The notes below the pieces were generated by a model, which saw only the letters and a list, made by a program, of their open reading frames with translations, was not told the origin of the DNA and did no database searches. Shown here piece after piece: positions 21,200 through 38,837 of a stretch of 64,000 nucleotides of DNA (positions are counted from its first letter, which is position 1; every line of letters starts with the position of its first letter). A program made the position numbers and the translations under genes. Source of the DNA: Nonomuraea turkmeniaca (lineage in GTDB: Bacteria > Actinomycetota > Actinomycetes > Streptosporangiales > Streptosporangiaceae); contig NZ_VCKY01000028.1 in NCBI RefSeq assembly GCF_005889735.1, positions 1 through 64,000 on the forward strand. The letters are read 5' to 3'.

Positions 21200-22351
21200 A
21201 TGACGGCGCTGAAAGACGGGGAGACAGACACGGCCAAGGGCTGGATGGCCCCGATCGATCTTGATCGGGTGCCTGAGGTCGAGGCGTTTCTCGACCGGCT
21301 CGGCTACGGCCGTTTCGATCGGGCGACTCTGGTGGCGCCCATCGGTCGCAACGAAGTGTGGGCGGGCCTGACCGGCAGCGGCAGGAAGGTCTTCGTCAAA
21401 CGTCTCATCGGGGGAGACGAGGCGAAGCCACGGCTGCGGCGCATGCTCGCCTTCGAGCGTTTCAAGGCGGCCCGGCCGGTCCTGGCTGACCAGGTCAGGA
21501 CCCCCGCCTTCCTGGGCGCCGACGAGGACGCCGGGCTCGTGGCCTTCGACTTCATGGACGAGGCCAGGAACGGCGCCGAAGCCATGATCGAGGAATCGTT
21601 CGGCGACGAGCTCGCCAGGCAGGTGGGCGAGGCGATCGGCCACCTGCACAATGCGGGGCCGCGGGCCGGCGAAGGGCTGGACGACGGCGCCTTCCCGCTG
21701 CCCGACCTGCAGCTGCTGCGCGGGCTGCCGTTCGAGATGTGGCACAACCTGAGCTACGGCGAGATGGAGAGCTGGAGCATCCTGCACGGCGACCCCGAGC
21801 TCATGCGCGGCATCCTCGCGCTGTGCGAGTGGGAGAGCCGGTCGGCCAAGGTGCCGGTCCACGGCGACTTCCGGGTCGACCAGCTCCTGCTGCCGGAGGA
21901 CGGCGGATTCCAGATCACCGACTGGGAGGACTTCCGACTGGGAGATCCGGCCCGCGACGTCGGCGCGTTCGCCGGCGAATGGTTGTTCCGCTCCATCCTG
22001 GACATCGTCAGCGCGCGGGGCGACGAGGTCGTCTTCGAGGCGGCCGAGTTCACGCACGAGATGGTGCTCCAGCGGGGGGCGGAGAAGATCGAGCGGCTCC
22101 GGCCGCGCATCCACGGCTTCTGGCAGGGCTACCGGGCCGTCAGGCCGGGACTCGACGACGAGTTCGCGGCGCGTGCCACGGCGTTCGCCGGCTGGCACAT
22201 GATGGACCGCCTGCTGGCCTCGGGAGCGCGCTCGGCCAAACTCTCCGGCATCCAGCGCGCGGCCGCCGGCATCGGCCGCACCGCGCTGCTCGCGCCCGCC
22301 CGCTTCACGATCGCCCTGGGTTTTGTCCTTGGGTTGGAGGAGGATGAATGA
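21200..22351 (+). CDS. lxmK-like: LxmK-like class V lanthipeptide synthetase subunit (kinase homologue)
   Basis: 383 aa, aminoglycoside-phosphotransferase fold. The catalytic loop is VHGDFRVDQLLLP (about residue 218) and the metal motif is ITDWEDFRLGDPARDVG (about 240). In class V lanthipeptides such as lexapeptide and pristinin, LxmK-type proteins work with a HopA1-like partner to phosphorylate precursor Ser/Thr and eliminate phosphate, giving dehydro residues. GGGGGAG lies 2 bases before ATG 21200. Its stop overlaps the HopA1-like gene by 4 bases. It is the first gene of the biosynthetic operon and acts in the cytoplasm on the two peptides at 23358 and 23617. Confidence 0.87.
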   Translation: MTALKDGETDTAKGWMAPIDLDRVPEVEAFLDRLGYGRFDRATLVAPIGRNEVWAGLTGSGRKVFVKRLIGGDEAKPRLRRMLAFERFKAARPVLADQVRTPAFLGADEDAGLVAFDFMDEARNGAEAMIEESFGDELARQVGEAIGHLHNAGPRAGEGLDDGAFPLPDLQLLRGLPFEMWHNLSYGEMESWSILHGDPELMRGILALCEWESRSAKVPVHGDFRVDQLLLPEDGGFQITDWEDFRLGDPARDVGAFAGEWLFRSILDIVSARGDEVVFEAAEFTHEMVLQRGAEKIERLRPRIHGFWQGYRAVRPGLDDEFAARATAFAGWHMMDRLLASGARSAKLSGIQRAAAGIGRTALLAPARFTIALGFVLGLEEDE

Positions 22352-23352
22352 GCGTCGCTGACCTGGCCGCGCCGGGCGGGATCGCCCCGGTGCTGGACGC
22401 GGTGACCGTCGACCTCGACGGGCTGCGCGCGAGCGTCGCCGGCGTCACGGTCGAGGCCGGCAGCACCGCCGAACTGGCGGTGAAACTCGCCCAGGCGCTC
22501 TACGAGGGGCTCCACACCGGGCGGCGTTCGGAAGAGGGCAAGAACCTGCCGTTCCACCTGCGGGACAAGGAGTTCGAGCAGGCCCTCGCGGAGAACGTCC
22601 CGCACGAGACGACGGTGTCGGAGGCGGTGGTCGCCGACGCGGGGGAGGACGAGAAGGTCCTGGTCGTGTGCGGGGGCCCGCGGGTCTGGGTGCCACGCGA
22701 CAGGATCCTGGAGCAGCCGCCGTTCACGCCGGGGCAGCGAGTGAACGTCACGCTGTCGCCGCTGCGGCCGGCGCTCTCACCGGGCTTCTTCTTCGTGCAC
22801 GGCTCGGCGCCGAGCGACATGCGCGGCGACATCCTGCGCGTGTACGTCCACCTGGCCGACCCGGAGCGGGCCCCGGCCGTCTGGCGCCTGGTCCTGGCCC
22901 ACCTGGAGGAGCAGGAGGCCGAGTACCGCGCGAAGGTGCTGTCCTCCACGCTGCTCTACCCGCGGCGCGACGGGCTCGTGGTCTACCTGGGCACCCGCTC
23001 CCGCGGCCTCGCCGCCGGTCTCGCGACCCTCCTGGCGGGGGTCCCCGGCGTGGGGACGGAGACGTCCGCGTTCGCGCACGCCCTGGGCCCCGGAGTGGCG
23101 ACCGCATGGGAGCCCGACGACCGCCGGCCGGTCATGAGAGGCATGAGCTTCGGCCAGCACCGAGCAGGTGTGCTCGGGCAGGCGCTCGTGGAGGCGGCCG
23201 CGGGCGGGACGCCGGCCTCAGAGCTGGTCGTCGCCCGGTTCGCAGAAGCCAACATCGACCCGTGCGACCTCGCACGGAATCGGACGTCGCCCCTGGCGAT
23301 GACGGAGGGCGGTTGCACGTGCCCCCCGGTACTTGATTCGGGAAGGAGGTGA
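22348..23352 (+). CDS. lxmY-like: LxmY-like protein (HopA1 effector family)
   Basis: 334 aa. The middle and C-terminal parts match the HopA1 effector family as found in class V lanthipeptide clusters: FFFVHGSAPSDMRGDILRVY, RDGLVVYLGTRSR and SFGQHRAGVLGQALVEA. LxmY is the proposed phosphate-lyase half of the dehydration complex, working with LxmK. ATG 22348 overlaps the LxmK-like stop (ATGA), so the subunits are made together. The stop is 5 bases before the first precursor gene, and the last codons contain that gene's ribosome-binding site. The C-terminal GGCTCPPVLDSGRR has two cysteines of unknown importance. Confidence 0.87.
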   Translation: MSVADLAAPGGIAPVLDAVTVDLDGLRASVAGVTVEAGSTAELAVKLAQALYEGLHTGRRSEEGKNLPFHLRDKEFEQALAENVPHETTVSEAVVADAGEDEKVLVVCGGPRVWVPRDRILEQPPFTPGQRVNVTLSPLRPALSPGFFFVHGSAPSDMRGDILRVYVHLADPERAPAVWRLVLAHLEEQEAEYRAKVLSSTLLYPRRDGLVVYLGTRSRGLAAGLATLLAGVPGVGTETSAFAHALGPGVATAWEPDDRRPVMRGMSFGQHRAGVLGQALVEAAAGGTPASELVVARFAEANIDPCDLARNRTSPLAMTEGGCTCPPVLDSGRR

Positions 23353-23357
23353 ACAGC

Positions 23358-23570
23358 ATGACGAAGAGCACGGCCATCATGGAGCTGGTCGCGGGCTACG
23401 ACACGTACGCCCAGCCCGGCGAGCTGCAGGTCTCCGCGATCTCCGACGCCCCCGAGCTGTGGTTCACGATTTGGGCCATCAGCTATGGCGTGCGCGTGAG
23501 TTCCGCCAAGTGCGCCATTTGGGCTTCGGCCGCGTCCGGCGCCGTTTCCGGCTGGATCCTGAACCGTTAA
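23358..23570 (+). CDS. class V lanthipeptide precursor peptide 1
   Basis: 70 aa. AAGGAGG 8 bases before ATG 23358 is among the strongest ribosome sites in the window, as expected for a precursor. The leader includes KSTAIMELVAGYDTYAQPG and ends near SDAPE. The core is hydrophobic, starts about LWFTIWAISYG and contains one Thr, six Ser and a single Cys in SSAKC, so one (methyl)lanthionine ring is possible, from Ser to the cysteine three or four residues on. There is no C-terminal Cys, hence no aminovinyl-cysteine here. The leader closely matches precursor 2. Confidence 0.85.
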   Translation: MTKSTAIMELVAGYDTYAQPGELQVSAISDAPELWFTIWAISYGVRVSSAKCAIWASAASGAVSGWILNR

Positions 23571-23616
23571 GGAGCGGGACCCGGTTTTCCTCACGATGAA
23601 AACGGAGGGAGGAAAA

Positions 23617-23838
23617 ATGCACGATGTCGTGCGGCCGTCGAAGACGGCGGCGATTATGGAACTCACGGCGGGCTATGACGCTTATGCCGATGCTTCCGAG
23701 TTCAGTTTGCCGGCCGAATCCGAGGCTCCCGCCGCCACGCCGGTGACGATTCTCGTCCTCGGCGGATTCGCCACCAGTTACGTGGTCAGCGGAATCGCCC
23801 GCAAGGCGTGGGACAGAACCTTCATCTTCGGTTGCTGA
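23617..23838 (+). CDS. class V lanthipeptide precursor peptide 2
   Basis: 73 aa from ATG 23617, with GGAGGGAGG just upstream. The leader carries KTAAIMELTAGYDAYADASE and SEAP, aligning over 31 positions without gaps with precursor 1. The core begins near ATPVTILVLGGF and ends DRTFIFGC. The single Cys is the last residue, which with a decarboxylase in the cluster predicts a C-terminal aminovinyl-(methyl)cysteine ring to Thr four residues inside. Ser and Thr in ATSYVVSG could become dehydro residues and, after reduction, D-alanine or D-aminobutyrate. The pair may be a two-peptide product or two separate products. Confidence 0.85.
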   Translation: MHDVVRPSKTAAIMELTAGYDAYADASEFSLPAESEAPAATPVTILVLGGFATSYVVSGIARKAWDRTFIFGC

Positions 23839-23854
23839 AAAGCCGGATGTAAGG

Positions 23855-23888
23855 GTGGGCAGGCGATATATGCAGGGCGCCTGCCCAC
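23855..23888 (+). terminator. hairpin between precursor genes and downstream enzymes
   Basis: GTGGGCAGGCG (23855-23865) pairs perfectly with CGCCTGCCCAC (23878-23888); a GCCGG/CCGGC pair outside can extend it. It lies 16 bases after the second precursor stop and before the methyltransferase. A partial terminator here would keep precursor mRNA in excess over enzyme mRNA. Confidence 0.55.
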
Positions 23889-23917
23889 ACCCGGCGCGTC
23901 ATGCCTCAAGGACATTC

Positions 23918-24946
23918 ATGCGAGATTCGAACGCCGACGACCTGACCGCGATGGCGGACCTGCTCACGCCGCTCGCCATCCGGGTCGCGGCCACGCTCCG
24001 CCTGGCGGACCACATGGCCGCGGGGGCGACGACGGGGACGGGCCTCGCCAAGGAGGCCGGCGCCCATCCCGCGACGCTGAAGAAGCTGCTGCGCTACCTC
24101 GTCTCCCGCGGGATCTTCCGGTGGAGCGAGGAACGCGGCTACGAGGTGACCGACCTCGGCGCCCCGCTGCTGGACGACGCGCCCGGCAGCGTACGAAGGA
24201 AGCTGAGCATGGACGGGCTGCTGGGCCTGGCCGAGCTGGGCCTGGTGGGGTTGCTGCACACCGTGCGCACGGGGGAGGCCGGCTACAAGGCGGCCTTCGG
24301 CAGGGACTTCTGGCAGGACGTGAGCGACGTGCCCGACGACGCCAATGTGCTGGCCGAGGAGGTGGCGAGCGGCCTGGCCGGAGACGGGCAGCTGATCGTG
24401 CACGCCTACGACTGGCTGGGCGTGCGCCGGGTCATGGACGTCGGGGGCGGCAACGGGACGTTGCTCATCGAGCTCGCCCGCACCCATCCCCACCTGCACG
24501 GCGCGGTGCTCGACCTGCCCGGCATGGCGCGGGCCGCGGCGCAGCGCATCGACCAGGCCGGCCTGGCCGACCGGTGCGAGGCGATCGAAGGCAGCTTCCT
24601 CGATCCGATCCCGCCGGGGTTCGACGTCTACCTCTTGTCGGCGATCCTGTGCGACTGGCCGGACGACGACGCCGTCAAGATCCTGCGCCGGTGCGGGGAG
24701 GCGGCCGGTGCGGACGGCCGCGTGCTCGTGGCCGACATGAACCTCATCTACGACGACGACGGGGACGCCGCCCGGATGAACCTTCTCCTGACCGGCACGG
24801 TCCCGGTGCCCGTACGCACGCTCAAGCAGCTCAAACGGCTCGGCACGGCGGCGGGCCTCGAGCTCTCGTGGGAGGGCCCGACGACGCGGAGGCGGACGCT
24901 CCTGGAGTTCCGCGCTGATCTATCCGGGCTGATCTATCCGCGCTGA
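23918..24946 (+). CDS. SAM-dependent methyltransferase (O-methyltransferase family fold)
   Basis: 342 aa. An N-terminal winged-helix dimerisation domain (about 1-100, with LLTPLAIRVAATLRLADHMA) precedes a Rossmann domain with VMDVGGGNGTLLIELA (SAM loop) and HGAVLDLPGM. Lexapeptide-type clusters carry such a protein (LxmM) that dimethylates the peptide N-terminus despite its O-methyltransferase fold; the same role is likely here. ATG 23918 is chosen with AAGGA 6 bases upstream; the open frame to 23855 lies in the hairpin. The last codons and stop lie in a 14-bp tandem repeat. Confidence 0.87.
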   Translation: MRDSNADDLTAMADLLTPLAIRVAATLRLADHMAAGATTGTGLAKEAGAHPATLKKLLRYLVSRGIFRWSEERGYEVTDLGAPLLDDAPGSVRRKLSMDGLLGLAELGLVGLLHTVRTGEAGYKAAFGRDFWQDVSDVPDDANVLAEEVASGLAGDGQLIVHAYDWLGVRRVMDVGGGNGTLLIELARTHPHLHGAVLDLPGMARAAAQRIDQAGLADRCEAIEGSFLDPIPPGFDVYLLSAILCDWPDDDAVKILRRCGEAAGADGRVLVADMNLIYDDDGDAARMNLLLTGTVPVPVRTLKQLKRLGTAAGLELSWEGPTTRRRTLLEFRADLSGLIYPR

Positions 24947-24994: not shown

Positions 24995-25018
24995 CGCACT
25001 CTCTTGGACAGGTGAGAA

Positions 25019-26860
25019 GTGGAACAGCAGGCGCCCACGAAGATCGTGGAAGAGCAACCAGCCACAGAGACCGCGGACGAGCGGCCGGCCGCGGAAGAGC
25101 AGCCCGCCACGCGGAAGCTCGCGCTCTCCCGCGAGATGACGGCCGGCAAGGCGAACCAGGTGGCCGCGATCGTGCTGCTGGCCCTGCTGTCGACCATCAC
25201 CACGCTCGCCCTGCCGCTGATCGGCGGGGCCTTCGTCGCCGAGCTCGAGAAGGGCGGCGGCGCGGTCACGTCGACCGCGCTGTGGATGGTCGCCGTCGGG
25301 CTGGCCGCGGCGATCACCGGGACCCTGTCCGGCTACCTGCTGTCCAAGCTCGGCATCGACCTCGTCACCAAGCTGCGCGTGCGCACGTTGAGGCACTCGC
25401 TGGGACTGCCGCTGAAGATCGCCAGGCGTGAGGGGACGGGCGACCTGGCGGCCCGGCTCACCTCCGACTCCTCCCAGGTGCGCGGCCTGACGGAGGTCGG
25501 GCCGCTGCAACTGCCCATGGCCGCGCTGCAGGTGGTCGCGACCCTCGTCATCATGGGCTTCCTTGACGGGATCCTGCTGCTGATGACGGTCGGATCGTTC
25601 CTGATCGCGATCGTCGGGGTCGCCTTCGTCGTCAAGGCGATCCGCAAGAAGTTCGAGGCACTCCAGGCGGGGGTCGGCAAGCTGTCCGACGACTTCGTCG
25701 CGACCTTGGAGTCGCTCACCGTCGTCAAGGCCCATCGTGCCGAGAGCAGGCTGGTGCGGAGCTTCTCCGAGCGGGCGGAGAACCTGGGCGGGCTCGAGAT
25801 CGCCGCCGCCCGGCTCGAGGCCATGGTCGTGCCGGTGATGACGCTGGCCCAGCAGGTCGCCCTGGTCGTCGTGATCATGGGTGGCGGCGTGCGCTACGTC
25901 GCCGGTGAGATCTCGCTGCCGAACCTCGTCTCGTTCCTGCTCCTGCTCCTGCAGCTGGCCGCTCCGCTGGTCATGGCCATCCAGGCCATCGGCGCCATCC
26001 AGGCCGGTCTGGTGGCCAAGCAACGTTTCGAGTCCGTCTTCTCGCTGCCGTACGAGCAGGTGGACGACCGCGCGGAGGACGGCGAGCCGGTGACGGTGGA
26101 GCCAGGAACCCCCGCGGTCGTGCTGCACGAGGTCGGCTTCGCCTACGAGGCGGGGCAGCCGGTGCTCGACGACGTCGGCTTCACCGTGCCGCCGAGCGGC
26201 CTGACCGCGATGGTCGGCAGGTCGGGGGCCGGAAAGACCACCGTGCTCGGCCTGATCGAGCGGTTCATGGAGCTCGACTCCGGGAAGATCTCGGTCTTCG
26301 GGCGTGAGGTGGCGGACTGGCCGCTGTCCGAGCTGCGCGGCCGGATCGCCTACGTCGACCAGTCCTTCACGCTGCTGCGCGACACGGTACGCAACAACCT
26401 GCTGCTCGGCCTCGACGAGAGCGTGCCGGACGAGGTCCTGCTCCACGCGCTGGAGCAGGTCGGCCTGCGGGAGGAGATCGCCGCGCTGCCCCAGGGACTC
26501 GACACGCGCATCGGCGGCGAGAACGACCTGTCGGGCGGGCAGCGGCAGCGCCTCGCCCTGGCCGGCGTGCTGCTCAGCGACGCCCGGCTGGTGCTGCTCG
26601 ACGAGCCGTCCTCCCAGCTCGACAGCCTCAACGAGGGCCGGCTCCGCGAGGTCGTCGACCGGCTCGCCGAGGACCGGGCGGTCCTGGTCGTCGCGCACCG
26701 CCTGTCCACCGTCCAGCATGCCCGCCACGTCATCCTCCTCGACCGGGGGAAGGTGCTGGCGCAGGGGACGCACGAGCGGCTGATGAGCGAGTGCGAGCCC
26801 TACGCCGACCTCGTACGCGGCCAGATGATCCGCCCCGTGGATTCCGTACCGGCTTCCTGA
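25019..26860 (+). CDS. ABC transporter, fused permease-ATPase (exporter)
   Basis: 613 aa. After a 40-residue acidic head, six membrane helices span about residues 50-330. The ATPase domain follows with Walker A GRSGAGKTT, signature DLSGGQRQRLALAG, Walker B LVLLDEPSSQLD and switch His in VVAHRLSTVQHA, all intact. There is no C39 peptidase domain, so leader cleavage must be done by another protein, probably the M16 protease at 29412. It should export the lanthipeptide. GTG 25019 follows AGGTGAG. Confidence 0.9.
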   Translation: MEQQAPTKIVEEQPATETADERPAAEEQPATRKLALSREMTAGKANQVAAIVLLALLSTITTLALPLIGGAFVAELEKGGGAVTSTALWMVAVGLAAAITGTLSGYLLSKLGIDLVTKLRVRTLRHSLGLPLKIARREGTGDLAARLTSDSSQVRGLTEVGPLQLPMAALQVVATLVIMGFLDGILLLMTVGSFLIAIVGVAFVVKAIRKKFEALQAGVGKLSDDFVATLESLTVVKAHRAESRLVRSFSERAENLGGLEIAAARLEAMVVPVMTLAQQVALVVVIMGGGVRYVAGEISLPNLVSFLLLLLQLAAPLVMAIQAIGAIQAGLVAKQRFESVFSLPYEQVDDRAEDGEPVTVEPGTPAVVLHEVGFAYEAGQPVLDDVGFTVPPSGLTAMVGRSGAGKTTVLGLIERFMELDSGKISVFGREVADWPLSELRGRIAYVDQSFTLLRDTVRNNLLLGLDESVPDEVLLHALEQVGLREEIAALPQGLDTRIGGENDLSGGQRQRLALAGVLLSDARLVLLDEPSSQLDSLNEGRLREVVDRLAEDRAVLVVAHRLSTVQHARHVILLDRGKVLAQGTHERLMSECEPYADLVRGQMIRPVDSVPAS

Positions 26861-26873
26861 AACAGGAGTGATG

Positions 26874-27848
26874 ATGCCCAGCCTTTCTGTCTTGTTGCCG
26901 ATGATGCCCACCCGGCACGAGCAGATCCTGTCCTTCGCCGCCCTGGTGCAGTGGACCGGCGCGCTGCGCCTGTGGCAGGGCCAGGCCCTGTCGCTCGACG
27001 CGCACCACAGCTTCGTCTTCGCCGCGGGCGCCGGCTTCAGGGTCCCGATGGGCACGGGCGTCTCGCTCATGCCGCTGAAGCACCCGCACGACGCGGCCGT
27101 GCACGCCCGGTCCGTCGCCGTGGCCTCCGGCCACCCGTTCGTCGCCGGGATCGGCCCGGGCGGGATCGACTTCCAGCGCAACATCGCCGGCGCCGCGTAC
27201 GGCAGCCAGTTGAAGGCGGTCAGGGAGTACGTCACCGCGATGCGCGGCCTCCTCGACGGCGAGGAGGTGGACCTGGACGGGGAGCACTTCACCGCCCACG
27301 ACGTGCTGCCGCCCCTGCCGACCCCGCCCGTGGAGATCGGCCTCGGCGTGCTGCGCCCGGCGATGGCCCGGCTGGCCGGCGAGATCGCCGATGTGGCGAT
27401 CACCTGGCTCACGCCCGCCTCCTACATACGCGACGTGATCGTCCCCGCGATCGAGGAAGGCGCGAAGGAGGCGGGGCGTCCTCTGCCCCGCCTGGTGGCG
27501 ATGGTGCCGATGTACGTGGCCCAGCCCGACCGGGACCCGACCCGCATCGTGCTGCAGTCCAACGCCGGGCACCTCATGCTGCCCCACTACGTCGACATGC
27601 TGACCAGGTCCGGCATCGAGATCGACCCGCAGCAGCCGGTCGAGACCGTGAAGCGGCTGATCAGCGGCGGGGCGTTCCTGACCGGGGACCCGGAGGACCT
27701 CGGCCGGCAGATCGGCGAGTTCCACGCCGCGGGCGTGGACGAAGTGGTGATCAACCTGACCGGGGTGGCCGCCTCCTACGGGCCGCAGACGGCGCTGTCG
27801 GAGATCGAGAGCATCCTGGGCAGCGCTGGTGGTGAGGCCACGCCGTGA
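26874..27848 (+). CDS. LLM-class (F420-type) reductase, LxmJ-like
   Basis: About 324 aa, TIM-barrel luciferase-like fold (PMGTGVSLMPLKHPHDAAVHA, FVAGIGPGGIDFQRNI). In lexapeptide biosynthesis the F420H2-dependent enzyme LxmJ reduces dehydroalanine to D-alanine; a member of the same superfamily inside this cluster suggests that step. ATG 26874 is preferred with AGGAG five bases upstream; ATG 26871 and GTG 26868 are alternatives. The stop overlaps the next GTG by 4 bases. Flavin rather than F420 as cofactor cannot be excluded from sequence alone. Confidence 0.87.
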   Translation: MPSLSVLLPMMPTRHEQILSFAALVQWTGALRLWQGQALSLDAHHSFVFAAGAGFRVPMGTGVSLMPLKHPHDAAVHARSVAVASGHPFVAGIGPGGIDFQRNIAGAAYGSQLKAVREYVTAMRGLLDGEEVDLDGEHFTAHDVLPPLPTPPVEIGLGVLRPAMARLAGEIADVAITWLTPASYIRDVIVPAIEEGAKEAGRPLPRLVAMVPMYVAQPDRDPTRIVLQSNAGHLMLPHYVDMLTRSGIEIDPQQPVETVKRLISGGAFLTGDPEDLGRQIGEFHAAGVDEVVINLTGVAASYGPQTALSEIESILGSAGGEATP

Positions 27849-29428
27849 ACACGCCGTCCACCGGGCCGTTCACCGGGCCGTTCACCGGGCCTCTGTCGGA
27901 CGCCGCCTACTCCCGGCTGCTGCTCGTCGCCACGGGCTCCCTGGCGGCGCGCAACCTGCCGTTCGCGCTGACCCTGCTCCGCGAGTCCCGGCCGGGGCTG
28001 AGCATCAGGGTGGTCGTCACACGTAGCGCGGAGCGGTTCGTCACGCGCGCGGCCCTGGCGCCCGAGGCGGAGGTCATGGTGGACGAGTGGCCGGACGACG
28101 CCGCGCCGGCCCGCCACGTCGACTGGGCCGAGTGGGCGCAGGTCATCGTCGTCTACCCGATGACCCTGCACTTCATGGGCCGCCTGGCGCTCGGCCTCGC
28201 CGACAGCCCGGCGCTGCTGGCCGCGCAGTGCACGCGGGCGCTCGTCGCCCTGGCGCCGGCCCTGCCGCCCGGAGGGCTGGAGAGCGCCGCCTACCAGTCG
28301 CACTGGAGCACCCTGAGCGCCCGGCCGAACGTGCTGCTCGTCCCTCCGCGCCCCGGGATCAGCATCGCGACCGGGCGGCCGGACTCGTGGTTGTCGACGC
28401 TGGCGCAGGCCATCGAGGCGGTCGACGCACGATGGGAGGAGCACACCCGCCGGGACGCCCCAGGGGCGTACAGCACGGGGGCGGACGGCACGGGTCACCT
28501 GTTGATGGAGGTGGCGCCCGACGCCGGAGGGTTCGTCTGGCGCCGCAGGCCGGGGCGGCTCGCGCACAGCGCGTTCGCGCCCGTCCATCCCGCGCTGAAC
28601 GGCAAGCTCGCCGGGCTGCTCGACGGCGCGGACGTACGTCCGGCTCGGGGCTCTCAGGACGGCGCGGACGCGCGGCCGGCTCCGGGCGAGCAGGACGGCG
28701 CGGACGTACGGCTTGCGCCGGGCGAGCAGGACGGCGAGTCCCGTGTCTACCGCGTGGGCGGCGCGGAGTCCGCGGCGCAGATGTTGCTGCGCGACGGGCC
28801 CGGGGAGCCGCTCGAACGGCTGCTGCGCGGCCTCGGCCGGGCACTGCGCGAGCTGCACGCCCTCGCACCGGGTGACGTCACCGGCCCGCCCCGCGCGCTG
28901 CGGAGGCTCCAGGAGTGGCTGGCCGGCCGCTCACCGAGCGCGACGGCGGCCGCGGCCGGCGCCGCGCTGGCCGACCGGCTCGGGGCCAAATCCTGGGACC
29001 GGCTCCGCGGCTGGTGCGCCGAGCAGGACGCCGATCCCGCCGTCGTGCTCTCCCACGGCGCGCCGGGCCTGGGCTCGCTCGCCGTGGACCCGGACAAGGG
29101 CACCGGCGAGCTGCTGATCGGCGAGGACCTGTGCGCCGCGCCCTGGTATCACGACCTCGCCTGGATCGCCGGGGAGCTCGTCGAGATGCGGTGGCTGCAC
29201 GAGGGCGACCCACAGGAGTGGCAGCGCCTGCTCGACGCGCTCTTCGAGGGGTACGGCCGGGACCTGGGCGAGGCCACGAACCGGCTCGTGGCCCTGCGCA
29301 TCGCCCTCCACCTACACGACATATCCGCTTACGTCGGTCTTGACGCTTCGCTACTCGCCGCGTACGCCGGATTCCTTGATTTTCTGGTCAATCTCGATGG
29401 AGGATCGCCGCATGCCCGGAATTCATAG
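27845..29428 (+). CDS. flavoprotein cysteine decarboxylase fused to an LxmX-like domain
   Basis: 527 aa. Residues about 17-195 are an EpiD/LanD-like flavoprotein: RLLLVATGSLAARNLPFALT, VVVTRSAERFV, and late ESAAYQSHWSTL. Such enzymes oxidatively decarboxylate a C-terminal Cys to an aminoenethiol. A linker of three 12-residue repeats (260-295) joins a second domain (about 300-527) with a phosphotransferase fold: VLSHGAPGLGSLAVD and PWYHDLAWIAGEL, in which the usual catalytic HGD is HGA, so kinase activity is doubtful. This half resembles LxmX-type class V synthetase subunits. GTG 27845 overlaps the LLM stop; the last 17 bases overlap the M16 gene. The N-terminus has a small TGPF repeat. Confidence 0.8.
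   Translation: MNTPSTGPFTGPFTGPLSDAAYSRLLLVATGSLAARNLPFALTLLRESRPGLSIRVVVTRSAERFVTRAALAPEAEVMVDEWPDDAAPARHVDWAEWAQVIVVYPMTLHFMGRLALGLADSPALLAAQCTRALVALAPALPPGGLESAAYQSHWSTLSARPNVLLVPPRPGISIATGRPDSWLSTLAQAIEAVDARWEEHTRRDAPGAYSTGADGTGHLLMEVAPDAGGFVWRRRPGRLAHSAFAPVHPALNGKLAGLLDGADVRPARGSQDGADARPAPGEQDGADVRLAPGEQDGESRVYRVGGAESAAQMLLRDGPGEPLERLLRGLGRALRELHALAPGDVTGPPRALRRLQEWLAGRSPSATAAAAGAALADRLGAKSWDRLRGWCAEQDADPAVVLSHGAPGLGSLAVDPDKGTGELLIGEDLCAAPWYHDLAWIAGELVEMRWLHEGDPQEWQRLLDALFEGYGRDLGEATNRLVALRIALHLHDISAYVGLDASLLAAYAGFLDFLVNLDGGSPHARNS
28622..28729. repeat. 36-bp repeat coding the interdomain linker
   Basis: Three in-frame copies starting GACGGCGCGGACG, encoding DGADVRPARGSQ and two variants. 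They lie between the flavoprotein and LxmX-like domains and give a flexible charged hinge. Confidence 0.82.
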
Positions 29429-31985: not shown

Positions 31986-31987
31986 TC

Positions 31988-32491
31988 GTGACACAGCAGG
32001 CCGAAGCGGTACGCCTGAGACCGCCCCAGAACGCCGTGCACCCCCGGGCGATCACGATGTGGACCACCCGGTCCGCCGTGGCGTACGGGCTGGTGGCGCT
32101 GGTGCTCGCCGGCCTGGCGGCGTTCGTCGACGGGGCGGGCACACTCTTCGCGGTGCTCGCGTTCCTGACGGCTCTGGCCGGCGCCTGCTACGCGGTCGTG
32201 GTGCCGCGGTGGCGTTACCGCGTGCATCGCTGGGAGGTGACGGACGACGCCGTCTACACGAGCTCCGGCTGGTTGTGGCACCAGTACCGGGTGGCGCCGA
32301 TGTCGCGCATCCAGACGGTGGACACCATGCGGGGCCCCTTCTACCAGCTGTTCAAGCTGTCGGCGGTGACCGTGACGACCGCGTCGGCGATGGGGCCGCT
32401 GCGGATCGACGGCCTGGACGAGGAGTTCGCCAGAGACCTGGTGGACCGGCTCAACAGGGTGACCCAGGCGACGCCGGGAGACGCGACGTGA
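31988..32491 (+). CDS. bacterial PH-domain membrane protein (YdbS-like)
   Basis: 167 aa. Two helices (about 28-46 and 52-72) precede a bPH2 domain with WEVTDDAVYTSSGWLWHQYR and RIQTVDTMRGPFYQLFKL. GTG 31988 is taken, nine bases after GGAAGG; GTG 31982, overlapping the M16 stop, is the alternative. Its stop overlaps the next GTG by 4 bases. YdbS/YdbT pairs usually stand outside biosynthetic clusters; in Bacillus they have been linked to resistance to other cells' antimicrobial peptides, so self-protection is a reasonable idea here. Confidence 0.85.
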   Translation: MTQQAEAVRLRPPQNAVHPRAITMWTTRSAVAYGLVALVLAGLAAFVDGAGTLFAVLAFLTALAGACYAVVVPRWRYRVHRWEVTDDAVYTSSGWLWHQYRVAPMSRIQTVDTMRGPFYQLFKLSAVTVTTASAMGPLRIDGLDEEFARDLVDRLNRVTQATPGDAT

Positions 32492-34215
32492 CGGTGGAGG
32501 ACATGAGGGTGCAGTCCGTCGGCTGGCGTCGGCTCGACCCCCGCATGTGCCTGGTCAACCTGCGCTGGCTCCTGCCGCCGATGGGCATCATCGCCCTGAC
32601 CGCGCTGGCCTCGGGCGGCGTGAACTGGGAAGATCACAAGCTGCAGATCGTCTCCGCCCTGCTGTTCGTCTACCTCACCTGCAGCGAGATGGTCCGGTGG
32701 CGGACCACGCGTTACCGGGTGACGGACGAGCAGGTCGAGGTCCACTCGGGCCTGCTCTGGCGGCGGCACGTCGCGATACCCCGCGACCGCGTCCGCACCG
32801 TGGACATGACGTCAGGGCCGGTGCACCGGGTCTTCGGCCTGTCGATCGTCACGATGGGCACCGGCCAGGCGCTCCGGACCGACCGTCGCGACCAGGTCAA
32901 ACTCGACGCCGTCGCCGCGGCCGAAGCGGCGACCCTCCGCGCGGAGCTCCTGCCCCGCGCACATGCCGCGGCCGCCGCGCCCGTCGAGCCGGAGCAACCC
33001 GTCGTCGAGTCGGAGCAGCCCAACGTCGAGTCGGAGCAGCCCGCCGTCGAGTCGGAGCAGCCCGTCGTCGAGCGGGAGAAACCAGCCGCCGGGCCGGCCG
33101 ATTCCCGCACGAGCGCCTCCGCGGACACGCCGAAGCAGGCCGCCGCTGCGGTGGCGCCCGCGGCGGAGGAGATCGCCCGTCTCCATCCCGCGTGGGTCCG
33201 GTACGCGCCGCTGAGCCCGCTCGTGTTCGTGATCGGCCTCGCCCCGCTGACCCAGGCGTACAACCTGGCCGAGAGGCTCGGCATCCCCGTGGACATCGAG
33301 GGTGCGGTGCTGGGGGTCATCGAGTTCCTGGGCTCGGCGCCGGCCTGGCTGTTCGCCGTGTTCCTCCTCATGATGCTGGTCGCCGGGGCGATCGGCACCG
33401 TGCTGCTGTTCACCGAGTCGTGGTGGAGGTTCCGCCTCGAACGCGAGCCCGGCAGCGCGAGCTCCGGCACCCTGCGCGTGAGCCGGGGGCTGCTCACGAC
33501 GCGTTCCTTCACGCTGGAGGAGCGCCGGCTGCGCGGCGCCGAGCTGATCGAGCCGTTCATGCTGCGCTGGGGCAGGGCGGCCCGGCTCAAGGCGATCGCG
33601 AGCGGGCTGCGCCAGACCTTGGACGGTCCGCGGGGCGGCTCCGGTGCGCTGCTTCCCCCGGCGCCCCGCCAGATGGCGCACGTGACGGCCGCGTCGGTGC
33701 TCGGGGAGACGGAGAGCCCCTTGTCGCCCACGCGGTTGCGTGCCCATCCGCGGGCGGCGCTGCGCCGCAGGTTGTTCCGCGCGGCCATGGCGAGCGTGGC
33801 GGCCATCGCCGCGGCGGCGGGGCTCGCCGGGCCGGCGGGATGGTCGACCGGCTGGTCCATGGCGGCCGCGGCCGTGGTCGTCGTGCCGCTCTCCCTCCTG
33901 CTCGCGGCCGACTCGTACCGGTCGCTCGGACACACGCTCTTCGGCGCCTACCTGGTGACCCGGTCCGGCGCGCTGCGGCGCCGCACCGTGGCGCTGCAAC
34001 GCACCGGCATCATCGGCTGGACCATCACCCGCTCCCCGTTCCAGCGGAGGTCGGGCCTGGCGAACATCGCGGCGACGACGGCGGCGGGGACCTTGGGCGC
34101 CTACACCGTGCGGGACGTCGGCTACGGCGACGGTCTCATGATGGCCGGCGAGGCGGTTCCGGGGTTGCTGGCGCAATTCATCGAGGGCGCGCCATCGAAA
34201 GGAACGGAGACATAA
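32488..34215 (+). CDS. bacterial PH-domain membrane protein (YdbT-like, multi-domain)
   Basis: 575 aa with three bPH2-like segments: YRVTDEQVEVHSGLLWRRHV (about 70), SGTLRVSRGLLTTRSFTLEE (about 330) and YLVTRSGALRRRTVALQRTG (about 490), each next to paired membrane helices. Between the first and second is a linker of five 7-residue repeats (ESEQPVV type) coded by 21-bp DNA repeats at 32986-33090. GTG 32488 overlaps the preceding stop. With the gene before it, it forms a YdbS/YdbT pair; immunity or membrane organisation of the exporter are possible roles. Confidence 0.85.
   Translation: MTVEDMRVQSVGWRRLDPRMCLVNLRWLLPPMGIIALTALASGGVNWEDHKLQIVSALLFVYLTCSEMVRWRTTRYRVTDEQVEVHSGLLWRRHVAIPRDRVRTVDMTSGPVHRVFGLSIVTMGTGQALRTDRRDQVKLDAVAAAEAATLRAELLPRAHAAAAAPVEPEQPVVESEQPNVESEQPAVESEQPVVEREKPAAGPADSRTSASADTPKQAAAAVAPAAEEIARLHPAWVRYAPLSPLVFVIGLAPLTQAYNLAERLGIPVDIEGAVLGVIEFLGSAPAWLFAVFLLMMLVAGAIGTVLLFTESWWRFRLEREPGSASSGTLRVSRGLLTTRSFTLEERRLRGAELIEPFMLRWGRAARLKAIASGLRQTLDGPRGGSGALLPPAPRQMAHVTAASVLGETESPLSPTRLRAHPRAALRRRLFRAAMASVAAIAAAAGLAGPAGWSTGWSMAAAAVVVVPLSLLLAADSYRSLGHTLFGAYLVTRSGALRRRTVALQRTGIIGWTITRSPFQRRSGLANIAATTAAGTLGAYTVRDVGYGDGLMMAGEAVPGLLAQFIEGAPSKGTET
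32986..33090. repeat. 21-bp repeat array in the YdbT-like gene
   Basis: Five in-frame units, the inner ones reading GAGTCGGAGCAGCCCGYCGTC, encode the acidic heptad-like linker EPEQPVV through EREKPAA. Confidence 0.8.
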
Positions 34216-34238
34216 CGCATGACGAAGGACGGATGTTC

Positions 34239-35150
34239 ATGACTGTTCTCCAGGCAGTGGGGTTGACAAAAAGATATGGGCCGGTATTAGCGGTCAGCAA
34301 TGCGAGTTTCTCGGTCCGGGCCGGCGCCATAACCGGCTTCCTGGGGCCGAACGGCGCGGGCAAGTCCACGACCTTGCGGATCTTCCTCGGCCTCGACCAC
34401 GCCACCAGCGGGTCGGCGCTCATCGATGGGAAGCCCATCAGCGAGTGGCCCGTCCCCGCCCGCAAGATCGGGGCGGCCCTGGACACGCAGTGTGCTCACC
34501 CCAGCCGCCGGGCGATCGACACCCTGCGCTGGGTCGCCAAGATGATCGGGGTCGATCCGAAGCAGAGCGAGGTGATGCTCGACCGGGTGGGCCTGACGGA
34601 GGTGGCCGGCCAGCGGGTCGGCAGGTTCTCGCTGGGGATGCGGCAGCGGCTGGCGCTGGCGATCGCATTGATCGGCAATCCGGAGATCGTCGTGCTGGAC
34701 GAGCCGATGAACGGGCTGGACCCCGACGGCATTTCCTGGATGAAAGACCTTTTGCGGCAGTTCCGCGACCAGGGCCGCACGGTTTTCGTGTCGAGTCATC
34801 TCCTGGCGGAGATGGAGGATCTTGTCGACGATCTTGTGGTCATCGCCCAGAGCCGGATCGTGGGCAGCGGGTCGGCGTCGGCGTTCATGCAGCGGTTCCA
34901 GGTGAAGAAGGTCACCGTGCGCTGCGAGAACCCGAAGGCGCTGGCTCCCGCGCTGGTGAAGGCCGGCGGCCGGGTGCGGGCGAGCGGCTCTCATGGCATC
35001 CAGGTCACCGGGCTGGCCTCCGGGCAGGTCGGGACGATCGCGCGGGACACCATGGTGGCGCTGTACGAGCTGAGGGAGGAGCGAAGCCTGCACCACGCGT
35101 TCGCGCAGGCCACGCAGGACAGGTCGAGCATCAAGGGTGAGGTGGGCTAG
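34239..35150 (+). CDS. ABC transporter ATPase (CcmA/BcrA type)
   Basis: 303 aa. Walker A GPNGAGKST, signature RFSLGMRQRLALAIAL (SLGM in place of SGGQ, normal for this subfamily), Walker B IVVLDEPMNGLDP and switch His in VFVSSHLLAEMEDL are all present. The C-terminal third is the DrrA-like extension. It pairs with the permease gene one base downstream. Transporters of this type commonly give producer immunity to lantibiotics (LanFEG). ATG 34239 is favoured, nine bases after GAAGGA; ATG 34233 is possible. A close paralogue is at 38925. Confidence 0.92.
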   Translation: MTVLQAVGLTKRYGPVLAVSNASFSVRAGAITGFLGPNGAGKSTTLRIFLGLDHATSGSALIDGKPISEWPVPARKIGAALDTQCAHPSRRAIDTLRWVAKMIGVDPKQSEVMLDRVGLTEVAGQRVGRFSLGMRQRLALAIALIGNPEIVVLDEPMNGLDPDGISWMKDLLRQFRDQGRTVFVSSHLLAEMEDLVDDLVVIAQSRIVGSGSASAFMQRFQVKKVTVRCENPKALAPALVKAGGRVRASGSHGIQVTGLASGQVGTIARDTMVALYELREERSLHHAFAQATQDRSSIKGEVG

Positions 35151-35891: not shown

Positions 35892-36012
35892 TCACTGCCA
35901 TCGGGGAGAATGCCCAGCTCGCTTGACATCTGGCCGGGGGGCGAGAGTCAAGTGATCGCGGGAATTGTCGCGTTTGGGTCGGGACAAAGCGGTTCAAATG
36001 GGGGATGATCGA

Positions 36013-36044
36013 GGGGCCAAAACTAGGGGGCCAAAACTAGGGGG
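36013..36044. promoter_or_regulatory. 14-bp tandem direct repeat before the SARP gene
   Basis: GGGGCCAAAACTAG occurs twice without a gap (36013-36026, 36027-36040), followed by GGGG. It ends 4 bases before GTG 36048. SARP regulators bind short direct repeats, so autoregulation is possible; it could also simply include the ribosome site. TTGACA at 35923-35928 is a candidate -35 element upstream. Confidence 0.45.
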
Positions 36045-36047
36045 ATT

Positions 36048-38837
36048 GTGCCGCTGATGCGTTTTGGAGTTCTGGGCCAACCGGCAATTTGGCGCCATGG
36101 TGAGGAGATCAGGCTCGCCACTCGGCGGTCGCGTGCGGTGCTGGCACACCTGTTGCTGAGCCCTGCCCGATCCGCCTCGGTCGAGAGCCTCATCTACGCG
36201 ATCTACGGGGACGAGCCTGCGAAGAGCGCCAGGAACCAGGTGCACCGCGGGGTCGGGGAGCTCAGGAAGTACGGCGTCACCATCGACGTGCACGACAACG
36301 TGTATCGGCTCATGGCCGCCGAGGACACCATCGACGCCTTCGTCTTCATGCGGTTGTACGACCAGGCGCGCGCCCTGACCGGCGACGGGGATCACGCCGG
36401 GGCGGCCGGCACGCTCGGCGAGGCCCTGGCCCTGTGGCGCGGCTCGGCCCTGTCCGGCCTCGACAGCGAGGCGTTCTTAGCCGAGGCGGCGGTGTGGGAC
36501 GAGCGCAGGCTTGCCGCGATCGAGGCCCGCATCGACGCCGACCTCGCGCTCGGCCGGCACCGAGAGGTGATCGCCGAGCTCCAGCAGCTCGCCGACCAGC
36601 ACCCGCTGCGGGAGGCGTTCTGCGGCCAGCTCATGCTCGCGTTGTACCGGTCGCAGCGGGGCAGCGAGGCGCTGCAGGCGTTCACGGACCTGGAGGAACG
36701 GCTCAGGGACGAGCTCGGCACCGATCCCAGCCCCGCGCTGCGGGATCTCTGGACGCGGATCCTGCGCCAGGACGCCGTCCTCGACCTCACGGCCCGGATC
36801 CCGCGGCAGGACTCCGAACCCGCGCGCCCCTCGGCACCCGTGCCGCGGCAGCTGCCCGCACGCTCGGGCGTCCTGGTCGGCAGGGATGCCGAGCTGCGGC
36901 GGATCACCGACGCGATCGAGGACCACGACACGGGTCCCGTGGTGGTGATCACCGGCACGGGCGGTGTCGGCAAGACCGCGCTGTGCCTGGAGGCCGCGCA
37001 CCGCGTGGCCGCCCGGTACCCCGACGGCCAGCTCTACGCCGACGATCTGAGCGAGCCCGGCGACGTCCTCGCCGGGTTCCTGACCGCGCTAGGGGCGACT
37101 GCCGACGAGATCCCGGAAGGCGCAGGCGCGCGCGCCGGGCTGCTGCGCAGCCTGCTGGCCCGCCGCCGCGTGCTGATCGTGCTGGACGGCGTGCGCGGGG
37201 CCCGCCACGTCGATCCCTTCCTGCCCGGCCATCCGGGCTGCGCCGTCCTGGTGACCAGCCGCTCGCCGCTGGCCCTGCTGCAGGGAGCCGTCCGGGTACG
37301 CGTGTCCGCCCTGGACCGGGCCGACGCCCTGGCGCTGCTGGCCGCGGGCGCGGGGGAGGAGCGCATGGCGGCCGAGCCGGAGGCGGCGGACCGGATCATC
37401 GACCTCTGCGCCCGGCTGCCGGTGGCCCTGCACATCGCCGCGGCCAGGCTGGCCACCAGGCCGCACTGGACCCTCGCCCGCCTGGCCGAACGCCTCGCCG
37501 ACCCGGCGAAGATCCTCCGCGAGCTGCGGCACGACGGCCAGAGCGTGGTCCCGACGTTGATGCGGGGCTACGAGGTGCTGCCCGCCGGCCCGCGCTCGCT
37601 GATCCGCAGGATCGGCTTCTACGGCAGCGCGGAGGTCACCGCCCGGACCACCGCGGCGCTCGCCGACGTCCCCATGGACGTGGCGGAGAACATGCTGGAA
37701 GAGCTGGCCGAGAGCCATTTCATGGTCACCGTGCGGGACGGCGAGCGCTTCCGCTGCCACGAGTTGCTGCTGGGCTTCGGGGCCGACCGCGCGCTGGCCC
37801 AGGACCCGGAGGAGGACCTGCGGGCGGCCGTGCAACGTGCGCTCGGCGGCTGGCTGGCGCTCACCGACGACGCCCACGCGTCGATGCGCGGGCAGGACAA
37901 CTCCATTCTCCGCGGTACGGCTCCGCGGTACCGGCCTCAGGGGGCGGCGCCCTGGTCCGGGGAGGGCGCGGCGTGGTTCGACGCCAAGCTGGACACGATC
38001 CTGGCGGCCGTGCGGCGGGCGGTCTCGTTCCCCGGCATGTGCTGGGAACTCGCCATCGCACCGCTCGCTCTCTACGAGGCGGGCTCCCGCTTCGACGTGT
38101 GGCTCGAGTCGCACGAGCTGGCCCTGTCCAGCGTGCGCGCGGCCGGGGACGTCCTCGGCCAGGCGGCGCTGCTCTACTCCCTCGGCCATCGGTCGCTGCT
38201 GGTCGGCGACTACGCCGGTGCCGCTCGCCGGCTGGAGAGGGCTTTACGGCTCTTCCAGCAGCTGGGTGACGATCACGGGCGCGGGCTGGCGCTGAGGTTG
38301 CTCGCCGACATCGACCGGATTCGCCAGGAGCCGGACAAGGCGCGCAGGACGTACGAGGAGGCCGCCGAGGTTCTGCGCAGGAGCGGGGATCCGGTGGGGG
38401 AGGCCGACGCGCTGGGCGGGCTGGCGATGGTGCTGCACAGCACGGGGGAGGAGCAGGCGTCCCAGGCCTGTCTGGAGCGGGCGCTCGTCCTGTGCCGGGA
38501 GGGTGGCAGCCTGCGGAGCGAGGCGCAGATCCGGCGCGGGGTGGCCATGCACGCCGCCAGGGCGGGCACGCCGGAGCAGGCCTATCCCGAGCTGCTCCAA
38601 GCGCTGGAGATCGCCACGTTCATCGGCGACCGGGTCGTGTTGTCGGACATCCTGCTCGACCTCGGCACCACGCGGATCCTGCTCGGTGACCCGAGGGCCG
38701 CCTACGACAACCTGGTCACCGCCGAGGAGATCGCGAAGGTCGCCGGCGTGAAGCGCACCGCCCTCCGGGCGCGGCAGGCCCGGGCCTTTCTCAACGGCAA
38801 CGGCGAGGCCACCCGCAATCCGGTGCGCGACCACTAG
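36048..38837 (+). CDS. SARP-type regulator with NB-ARC and TPR domains (AfsR-like)
   Basis: 929 aa. Residues about 1-90 form the winged-helix DNA-binding domain (RFGVLGQPAIWRHGEEIRLA, RSRAVLAHLLLSP) and 95-245 the bacterial transcriptional activation domain (RHREVIAELQQLADQHPLRE). An NB-ARC NTPase has Walker A ITGTGGVGKTALC and RRRVLIVLDGVRG. The C-terminal 300 residues are TPR-like. Such proteins activate antibiotic clusters; being next to the transporter genes, this is the likely pathway activator. GTG 36048 or ATG 36057 may start it. The preceding 156-bp region holds promoter and direct repeat. Confidence 0.9.
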   Translation: MPLMRFGVLGQPAIWRHGEEIRLATRRSRAVLAHLLLSPARSASVESLIYAIYGDEPAKSARNQVHRGVGELRKYGVTIDVHDNVYRLMAAEDTIDAFVFMRLYDQARALTGDGDHAGAAGTLGEALALWRGSALSGLDSEAFLAEAAVWDERRLAAIEARIDADLALGRHREVIAELQQLADQHPLREAFCGQLMLALYRSQRGSEALQAFTDLEERLRDELGTDPSPALRDLWTRILRQDAVLDLTARIPRQDSEPARPSAPVPRQLPARSGVLVGRDAELRRITDAIEDHDTGPVVVITGTGGVGKTALCLEAAHRVAARYPDGQLYADDLSEPGDVLAGFLTALGATADEIPEGAGARAGLLRSLLARRRVLIVLDGVRGARHVDPFLPGHPGCAVLVTSRSPLALLQGAVRVRVSALDRADALALLAAGAGEERMAAEPEAADRIIDLCARLPVALHIAAARLATRPHWTLARLAERLADPAKILRELRHDGQSVVPTLMRGYEVLPAGPRSLIRRIGFYGSAEVTARTTAALADVPMDVAENMLEELAESHFMVTVRDGERFRCHELLLGFGADRALAQDPEEDLRAAVQRALGGWLALTDDAHASMRGQDNSILRGTAPRYRPQGAAPWSGEGAAWFDAKLDTILAAVRRAVSFPGMCWELAIAPLALYEAGSRFDVWLESHELALSSVRAAGDVLGQAALLYSLGHRSLLVGDYAGAARRLERALRLFQQLGDDHGRGLALRLLADIDRIRQEPDKARRTYEEAAEVLRRSGDPVGEADALGGLAMVLHSTGEEQASQACLERALVLCREGGSLRSEAQIRRGVAMHAARAGTPEQAYPELLQALEIATFIGDRVVLSDILLDLGTTRILLGDPRAAYDNLVTAEEIAKVAGVKRTALRARQARAFLNGNGEATRNPVRDH

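What the first reader, a model, noticed from the sequence alone, without database searches (positions are those of the whole stretch)
21200..38837. Complete class V lanthipeptide gene cluster
LxmK-like kinase homologue and HopA1/LxmY-like partner overlap by 4 bp; two precursor genes follow at once, then methyltransferase, exporter, LLM reductase, decarboxylase-LxmX fusion, M16 protease, PH-domain pair, second ABC transporter and SARP activator. Class V is a recent and small group (lexapeptide, cacaoidin, pristinin). The core sequences here do not match any I recall, so the product may be new.
Basis: partly seen in the sequence, partly recalled or inferred. Interest (0 to 1): 0.92.

Follow-up and report, generated by a model that had tools for sequence, protein, structure and literature searches.

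The report
Paired lantibiotic genes with split rings
A soil actinomycete carries a gene set for a known type of ring-containing peptide, but its two peptides appear to have divided the usual ring types between them, one keeping only an inner ring and the other only the tail ring, and related species keep that division.

Summary
The cluster is real. LxmK scores 450 bits (cut-off 315) and both precursors pass the LxmA-leader model; LxmY matches HopA1 at 136 bits (cut-off 22.7). It is a class Va lanthipeptide cluster of the pristinin/sistertide type. That kind is no longer rare: PMC12291118 counts 851 putative class Va clusters and already mentions LanD-LanX fusions.

What stands out is the precursor pair. 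A1 has one internal Cys in a self-cyclising SSxxC motif and no C-terminal Cys. A2 has only a C-terminal Cys, in T-X4-C. So A1 can form only a lanthionine and A2 only AviMeCys. All 4 Nonomuraea loci with this cluster keep the split; none of the other 90 LxmK loci fetched shows it (61 of those 90 had a detected precursor). Point estimates of dN/dS are lower for A1 and A2 (0.15, 0.04) than for seven enzyme segments (0.20-0.35). A conserved triple 11-bp repeat upstream of lxmK fits a SARP operator.

Verdict: new variant of a known kind. Products and joint action are untested. Side result: four other loci pair class V enzymes with Cys-free, Ser/Thr-alternating precursors.

The parts
21118..21144 (+). 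Three GGAAG direct repeats at 11-bp spacing, probable SARP operator; a TAGCTT -10-like hexamer (21155-21160, read by eye) lies 8 bp after the third heptamer
   Evidence: 1 match in the window with up to 1 mismatch, 0 in 100 shuffles (the pattern was chosen after seeing the alignment); exact matches in 10 of 136 loci, all copies of the four orthologous clusters; repeat and -10 spacing as described for SARPs in PMC10936776
21200..22351 (+). LxmK, class V Ser/Thr kinase
   Evidence: NF038156 450.3 bits, cut-off 315; solved LxmK 9dk1-9dk3 E 3.3e-78, with the five LxmK residues named in PMC12291118 (R49, K66, D221, Q226, D241) conserved in the alignment
22348..23352 (+). LxmY, HopA1-type phospho-Ser/Thr lyase
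   Evidence: PF17914 136 bits; LxmY chain 9dk1_B E 1.3e-48; K-x9-R-x6-Y has the spacing of CaoY K219/R229/Y236 (spacing only)
23358..23570 (+). Precursor A1, 70 aa; leader 33 aa, core 37 aa (23457-23567); one Cys (core C19) in S15-S16-A-K-C19; no C-terminal Cys
   Evidence: NF038146 25.5 bits, cut-off 25 (on the longer reading); conserved in 4 loci; alignment with sistertide A1
23617..23838 (+). Precursor A2, 73 aa; leader 39 aa, core 34 aa (23734-23835); only Cys is C-terminal (core T29-x4-C34)
   Evidence: NF038146 32.8 bits, cut-off 25 (on the longer reading); conserved in 4 loci
23855..24946 (+). Methyltransferase (LanM-type methyltransferase of class V clusters; probable N-terminal dimethylation)
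   Evidence: PF00891 103 bits; role inferred from pristinin and sistertide clusters
25019..26860 (+). ABC exporter
   Evidence: PF00664 and PF00005
26868..27848 (+). LanJ, F420H2-dependent LLM-type Dha/Dhb reductase
   Evidence: PF00296 99.9 bits; TIGR03564 139.6 bits, below its cut-off of 234.25
27845..29428 (+). LanD-LanX in one ORF: Cys decarboxylase (about 27911-28390) and kinase-fold AviMeCys cyclase (about 28727-29392)
   Evidence: CypD structure 6jdd E 9.6e-17; NF033753 69.9 bits, below its cut-off of 215; D and X profiles in the same ORF
29340..31985 (+). M16 protease, both M16 halves in one chain; probable leader peptidase (true start probably ATG 29397)
   Evidence: PF00675, PF05193
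31982..32491 (+). bPH_2 (YdbS-like) membrane protein, first of the PH pair; export or immunity inferred
   Evidence: PF03703 50.6 bits; start read
32488..34215 (+). Second PH-type (YdbT-like) membrane ORF
   Evidence: position and overlap only; no Pfam match at E<=0.01
34239..35150 (+). ABC ATPase (start approximate)
   Evidence: PF00005 96.9 bits
35151..35891 (+). ABC-2 permease
   Evidence: PF12679 24.9 bits, just under its cut-off of 27.2
36048..38837 (+). SARP-NB-ARC-TPR activator (AfsR-like)
   Evidence: PF03704 148.5 bits; NF053617 412 bits, below its cut-off of 1430
38925..40127 (-). Further ABC ATPase, possibly part of the cluster
   Evidence: PF00005 103 bits; conserved next to the cluster in G031, G032 and G053

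Best explanation
A SARP-controlled class Va lanthipeptide operon that makes two peptides, each with one kind of ring. LxmK phosphorylates and LxmY eliminates Ser/Thr of both precursors, recognising the same leader register (Y-20, Y-17, E-12, L/F-11). In A1, the Dha15-Dha16-Ala-Lys-Cys19 segment closes a lanthionine, largely without an enzyme. In A2, the LanD half oxidatively decarboxylates the C-terminal Cys and the LanX half closes the AviMeCys ring Thr29-Cys34. LanJ reduces some Dha/Dhb to D-Ala/D-Abu, the methyltransferase may dimethylate a free N-terminus, the M16 protease removes the leaders, and the ABC/PH proteins export and protect. The state derives from sistertide/pristinin-like ancestors whose A1 had three Cys and A2 two: A1 lost the outer rings and A2 lost its lanthionine ring. 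Shown: gene content, precursor sequences, their conservation, the tree. Inferred: every chemical step, core boundaries, bioactivity and the joint action of the two peptides.
For: Family matches: LxmK, LxmA leader x2, HopA1; solved LxmK/LxmY relatives; CypD-like half. Split pair in 4 of 94 LxmK stretches, all 4 the same cluster in Nonomuraea. In the 20-locus clade that holds it (support 96), 16 of the 16 other loci have at least one precursor with two or more Cys including a C-terminal one. Core variation among 4 species: A1 4 of 37 sites, A2 1 of 34, none at Ser/Thr/Cys. dN/dS A1 0.148, A2 0.039, enzymes 0.200-0.353. The (Dha/Dhb)2-X-X-Cys self-cyclisation and RosX chemistry are from PMC12291118; ring positions of sistertide A1 from PMC11162475.
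Against: No product or mass is known. The A1 leader score (25.5) is barely above the cut-off of 25. dN/dS differences were not tested for significance, precursors are short, and A1 (0.148) is close to the D segment (0.200). Precursors with only a C-terminal Cys are not unusual: 11 other loci have one, so only the combination is special. The N-terminal part of A1 and the middle of A2 align poorly with the relatives, so which Ser/Thr were lost is uncertain. The AlphaFold model of the D-X protein was useless (mean pLDDT 36).
Confidence: 0.7

Rival explanations
1. Two independent products of one promiscuous class Va system, as with the sistertides; the peptides act separately and the ring difference is drift.
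For: The sis and keb clusters make two different peptides with one enzyme set (PMC11162475). Multi-precursor clusters are common in the survey.
Against: The same split is kept in four species with few core changes. This does not show joint action, so the rival is open.
Confidence: 0.45
2. A2 is the working product; A1 is a decaying paralogue that has lost its C-terminal Cys.
For: A1 lacks the hallmark C-terminal Cys and its leader score is marginal. Its dN/dS point estimate is higher than that of A2.
Against: A1 is intact in 4 of 4 loci, dN/dS 0.148, ribosome-binding site and SSxxC kept, no change at Ser/Thr/Cys.
Confidence: 0.1
3. A1 is not an antibiotic but a signal, or a protective or chaperone-like partner for A2.
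For: Rosin A1, a class Va peptide, had no antibacterial activity in the assays reported (PMC12291118).
Against: None specific; nothing here points to signalling.
Confidence: 0.1
4. Class Vb cluster (lanthionine only).
For: A1 alone would give a lanthionine-only peptide.
Against: Class Vb uses a LanC cyclase (PMC12291118); no LanC-type domain was matched among the cluster proteins scanned, and LanD-LanX is present.
Confidence: 0.02

Closest known systems
Sistertide / kebanetide (sis, keb) clusters, PMC11162475
   Same: Same gene kinds; two precursors of the A1 and A2 types; A1 shares the SSxKC ring segment and the ASAxSGA segment after it; a Streptomyces-like sis relative in the survey (L089) also has D and X in one ORF.
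   Different: SisA1 has three Cys and SisA2 two, and both end in Cys. Here A1 has one internal Cys and A2 only the terminal one.
Pristinin A3 (spr) cluster, PMC7794033
   Same: Kinase, HopA1 protein, LLM reductase, Cys decarboxylase, M16 protease, methyltransferase, ABC transporters, more than one precursor.
   Different: SprA3 carries three thioether rings including AviMeCys. D and X (sprF2, sprF1) are separate genes there.
Rosin (ros) cluster, PMC12291118
   Same: LanK, LanY, LanD, LanX and LanJ logic; self-closing (Dha/Dhb)2-X-X-Cys ring; LanX as AviMeCys cyclase. The paper notes that LanD and LanX are fused in some class Va clusters.
   Different: Lanthionine and AviMeCys are in the same peptide; no N-methyltransferase.
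Two-peptide leaderless bacteriocin EntDD14, PMC8657885 (abstract seen)
   Same: A PH-domain protein pair beside a two-peptide bacteriocin, needed there for export.
   Different: Unmodified leaderless peptides; unrelated biosynthesis.
   Same: Sister group on a five-protein tree (L044 and L046 included; support 85/92); A1 and A2 type precursors, one of which lacks the C-terminal Cys.
   Different: There A2 is the peptide without the C-terminal Cys and A1 keeps three Cys.

Membership tests
Class V lanthipeptide | Standalone LanK kinase | tested here: met
   NF038156 450.3 bits over cut-off 315
Class V lanthipeptide | Standalone LanY lyase (HopA1, PF17914) | tested here: met
   136 bits over 22.7; the only HopA1 match in the whole genome
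Class V lanthipeptide | LxmA-type leader on the precursor | tested here: met
   A1 25.5 and A2 32.8 bits, cut-off 25; A1 only just
Class Va subgroup | LanD Cys decarboxylase | tested here: met
   PF02441 51.8 bits, CypD structure E 9.6e-17; NF033753 below its cut-off
Class Va subgroup | LanX kinase-fold cyclase without kinase catalytic residues | tested here: inconclusive
   Homology to the ORF after LanD in other loci; weak profile match to LanK, where the catalytic Asp, Gln and Mg-binding Asp of LanK face Ala, Ser and Ile; fold model failed
Class Va subgroup | No LanC cyclase | tested here: met
   No LANC_like match in the cluster proteins scanned; the rest of the genome was not searched for LanC
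Class Va subgroup | (Me)Lan and C-terminal AviMeCys in the same peptide | tested here: not met
   A1 has no C-terminal Cys; A2 has no other Cys. Met only for the pair taken together
Sistertide (sis) family | Precursors ending in T-X4-C with additional Cys | tested here: not met
   A1 lacks the terminal Cys and A2 lacks the additional Cys
Two-component lantibiotic | Two distinct precursor genes in one cluster | tested here: met
Two-component lantibiotic | Synergy of the two mature peptides | not testable with these tools
   needs purified products
Thioamitide | YcaO-type thioamide synthetase beside LanK/LanY | tested here: not met
   no YcaO match among the cluster proteins scanned

The most novel reading that the evidence does not exclude
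A1 and A2 form an obligate two-component class V antibiotic in which the lanthionine and the AviMeCys ring, normally joined in one molecule, have been divided between two partners that act together. In the moderately supported sister lineage (L044 group) one partner has also lost its C-terminal Cys, but the opposite one, which would mean that a pair needs one AviMeCys peptide and tolerates or prefers one partner without it.
Probability: 0.25. Interest if true: 0.75.

Novelty: new variant of a known kind. Interest (0 to 1): 0.5.

Why it matters
[quoted passage not shown] A conserved natural pair that separates them lets one ask which ring does what, using one enzyme set. It also exposes a blind spot: the mining rule in PMC11162475 relies on a C-terminal Cys, and the precursor set in PMC9486802 required Cys, so A1-type precursors escape the first and Cys-free precursors escape both. 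The recurrent LanD-LanX fusion (six loci that the tree test does not allow as one clade, p 0.0016) supports the idea in PMC12291118 that these two enzymes work as a complex.

Tried and rejected
Rare or categorically new system: rejected, because class Va is widespread (PMC12291118). The LanD-LanX fusion as the novelty: rejected, because PMC12291118 mentions it and L051 and L089 have it too. Sequencing error or truncation behind the missing C-terminal Cys of A1: rejected, because 4 of 4 loci agree. Decaying A1: disfavoured. Class Vb and thioamitide: not supported by the Pfam scans. One origin of the fusion: disfavoured (AU p 0.0016), but the group was named after the first tree had been seen, under LG+G4, on 22 loci that I selected from 94. 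AlphaFold2 on the D-X protein with three sequences gave mean pLDDT 36 and pTM 0.31, and was not used; no fold search was run. The genome-contig scan with LxmK found only two named relatives, N. pusilla and N. zeae. Survey limits: precursors were called by a leader profile at domain E<=0.01 with 5-90 residues after it; 29 of 94 stretches had no called precursor, some were short contigs, and a few pairs come from the same genome (two stretches of G910 overlap). The earlier short or off-centre stretches L004-L012, L018-L020 and L023-L043 were replaced by wider ones of the same places and not counted twice. Rows dropped from the K+Y tree: 2 of 94, without a Y match.

Literature: searches, in an open-licence library only. 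None listed a title or abstract about a split-ring class V pair, a Nonomuraea class V cluster, or Cys-free class V precursors; I read passages or sections of seven papers, not all that were listed. Seen: PMC12291118, parts 1-3 of 6 plus passages; PMC9486802, part 1 of 5 plus passages; PMC11162475, passages plus section 8; PMC7794033, PMC11580447 and PMC10936776, passages; PMC8657885, abstract and outline.
Full report
What is there. The window lies in an 11.35-Mb genome whose nearest named relatives by LxmK are Nonomuraea pusilla and N. zeae, both 87% identical. From 21200 to about 38837 on the + strand lie lxmK, lxmY, two precursors, a methyltransferase, an ABC exporter, an LLM reductase, a LanD-LanX ORF, an M16 protease, two PH-type ORFs, an ABC-2 transporter and a SARP regulator. 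LxmK scores 450.3 bits against an equivalog cut-off of 315 and aligns over residues 16-374 to solved LxmK (9dk1-9dk3, E 3.3e-78). The five LxmK residues named in PMC12291118 as catalytic, Mg-binding or ATP-binding are conserved in that alignment. LxmY matches HopA1 at 136 bits and the LxmY chain of 9dk1 at E 1.3e-48. It is the only HopA1 match in the genome. The spacing of its K, R and Y equals that of CaoY K219, R229 and Y236 given in PMC9486802; this is a spacing match only.

The precursors. Ribosome-binding sites place the starts at ATG 23358 (A1, 70 aa) and ATG 23617 (A2, 73 aa). Both leaders carry Tyr, Tyr and Glu followed by a hydrophobic residue in the register -20, -17, -12, -11 reported as important for CaoA (Phe at -20 there) and rosin. 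Counting in that register puts the cores after DAPE (A1) and EAPA (A2); the sistertide cores also begin after APA. The A1 core, LWFTIWAISYGVRVSSAKCAIWASAASGAVSGWILNR, has one Cys and no C-terminal Cys. The A2 core, ATPVTILVLGGFATSYVVSGIARKAWDRTFIFGC, has only the C-terminal Cys.

Why the pair is odd. In sistertide A1 the rings are Thr1-Cys5, Ser14-Cys18 and Thr29-Cys34; sistertide A2 has a lanthionine and an AviMeCys ring (PMC11162475). The window's A1 keeps the middle SSxKC segment and the ASAxSGA segment after it, and lacks the other two Cys. The window's A2 keeps the terminal T-X4-C and lacks the other Cys. The alignment of the A1 N-terminus and of the middle of A2 is uncertain.

Survey. 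I searched LxmK in 54 same-genus genomes (9 with a match), 341 same-family genomes (37), 396 phylum-wide genomes (6) and 392 genomes of one other genus (49), and fetched stretches around all listed places of the last three searches (94 in all with the window). In these 94: 62 have both LanD and LanX, 6 of them in one ORF; 65 have at least one leader-bearing precursor, 124 precursors in all. Of the 49 stretches with D, X and a precursor, 41 have only precursors ending in Cys. Eight have one that does not: the window and its three orthologues, L044, L046, L050 and L095. A split pair (one peptide with internal Cys only, one with terminal Cys only, none with both) occurs in 4 of 94, all of them this cluster: window, L015 (N. 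pusilla), L016, L017 (N. zeae). Precursors with only a terminal Cys occur in 11 other loci, so A2 alone is not unusual. A search with the A1 protein in 345 order genomes found full-length matches only in the same four; ten other genomes gave weak partial matches.

History. On a LanK+LanY tree of 92 stretches the four form a clade (100) inside a 20-locus clade (96). All 16 other members have at least one precursor with two or more Cys including a terminal one, so loss of Cys is the simpler direction. On a five-protein tree of 22 selected loci the nearest group is L044/L046, with moderate support (85/92). In that group A2, not A1, lacks the terminal Cys. The six fused LanD-LanX loci do not form one clade (AU p 0.0016), so fusion or splitting happened more than once; the group was named after seeing a tree.

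Selection. Among the four species A1 has 4 variable sites of 37 in the core and A2 1 of 34, none at Ser, Thr or Cys. Nei-Gojobori dN/dS, mean of six pairs, is A1 0.148, A2 0.039; K 0.213, Y 0.353, methyltransferase 0.256, J 0.273, D 0.200, X 0.283, protease 0.263. Enzyme values are for profile-matched segments, no significance test was made, and A1 lies close to D. The values argue against A1 being a relic.

Regulation and surroundings. Three GGAAG repeats at 11-bp spacing lie at 21118-21144, with a -10-like TAGCTT 8 bp after the last heptamer. PMC10936776 describes SARP sites as direct repeats 11 or 22 bp apart whose 3' repeat lies 8 bp from the -10 element. The pattern occurs once in the window and in no shuffle, and in 10 of 136 fetched loci, all copies of these four clusters. 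It was picked by eye first, so the shuffle test flatters it. The block 10345-40159 is collinear in G031, 10368-39996 in G032, and 19076-39996 in G053, where the contig begins, so the cluster sits at a shared chromosomal place in these genomes. PH-domain pairs are needed for export of the two-peptide bacteriocin EntDD14 (PMC8657885, abstract); a similar role here is inference.

Mechanism. LxmK/LxmY dehydrate both peptides. A1's Dha-Dha-Ala-Lys-Cys fits the (Dha/Dhb)2-X-X-Cys motif that closes without an enzyme in rosin (PMC12291118). A2 needs D-X: the D half resembles CypD (6jdd, E 9.6e-17), and the X half aligns to LanK by profile (probability 79, E 1.6e-5) with the catalytic Asp, Gln and Mg-binding Asp replaced, as PMC12291118 describes for RosX. 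An AlphaFold2 model was too poor to use. Reduction, methylation, leader removal and export follow from the gene kinds. No product has been seen.

Side observation. Four stretches (L070-L073; four genomes, three genera by their group codes) have LanK, LanY and LanJ but no LanD or LanX match, and 20 leader-bearing precursors without any Cys. In 15 of these 20 cores Ser/Thr alternate with other residues in runs longer than in shuffles (p<0.05 each, uncorrected), against 1 of 102 Cys-bearing cores. In L072 the genes run K, Y, J, ABC exporter, M16, with LuxR-type regulators nearby. If dehydrated and reduced they would be D,L-alternating peptides, as in channel-forming beta-helices (recalled: gramicidin, polytheonamide). 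Against this: L070 has a LanM-like ORF (DUF4135 plus LANC_like, 14617-17118 minus) nearby, the precursors are near-copies of each other, and nothing was tested.

Verdict. A genuine, probably working class Va cluster; ordinary in its enzymes, unusual in dividing the ring types between two conserved precursors. New variant of a known kind.

Noticed in passing
L070 (G097:C13), L071 (G096:C23), L072 (G211:C45), L073 (G208:C28), near 8.4-11.8 kb of each locus: Class V-like clusters with LanK, LanY and LanJ but no LanD/LanX match, and 4-6 LxmA-leader precursors each whose cores have no Cys and mostly alternate Ser/Thr with hydrophobic residues (15 of 20 with p<0.05 against shuffles). They could give D,L-alternating peptides. 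L070 also has a LanM-like ORF nearby.
   Followed up: partly
L044, L045, L046, L048 precursors: Two-precursor clusters in which A1 keeps three Cys and A2 has one internal Cys and no C-terminal Cys, the opposite of the window.
   Followed up: partly
window 27845-29428; L051; L089: LanD and LanX in one ORF in six of 62 stretches that have both; the tree test does not allow one clade (p 0.0016).
   Followed up: yes
window 38925-40127 (-): ABC ATPase gene similar to the cluster's own ATPase gene (inverted match of 34264-35113 to the region in relatives), conserved beside the cluster.
   Followed up: partly
window 20320-21039 (-): GPP34 (Golgi phosphoprotein 3) family gene directly upstream of the cluster; probably not part of it.
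   Followed up: no
window 44573-46372 (+): Pectate lyase and pectinesterase domains in one ORF.
   Followed up: no
L050 precursors: Three precursors, two of which have Cys but no C-terminal Cys, with CC pairs.
   Followed up: no
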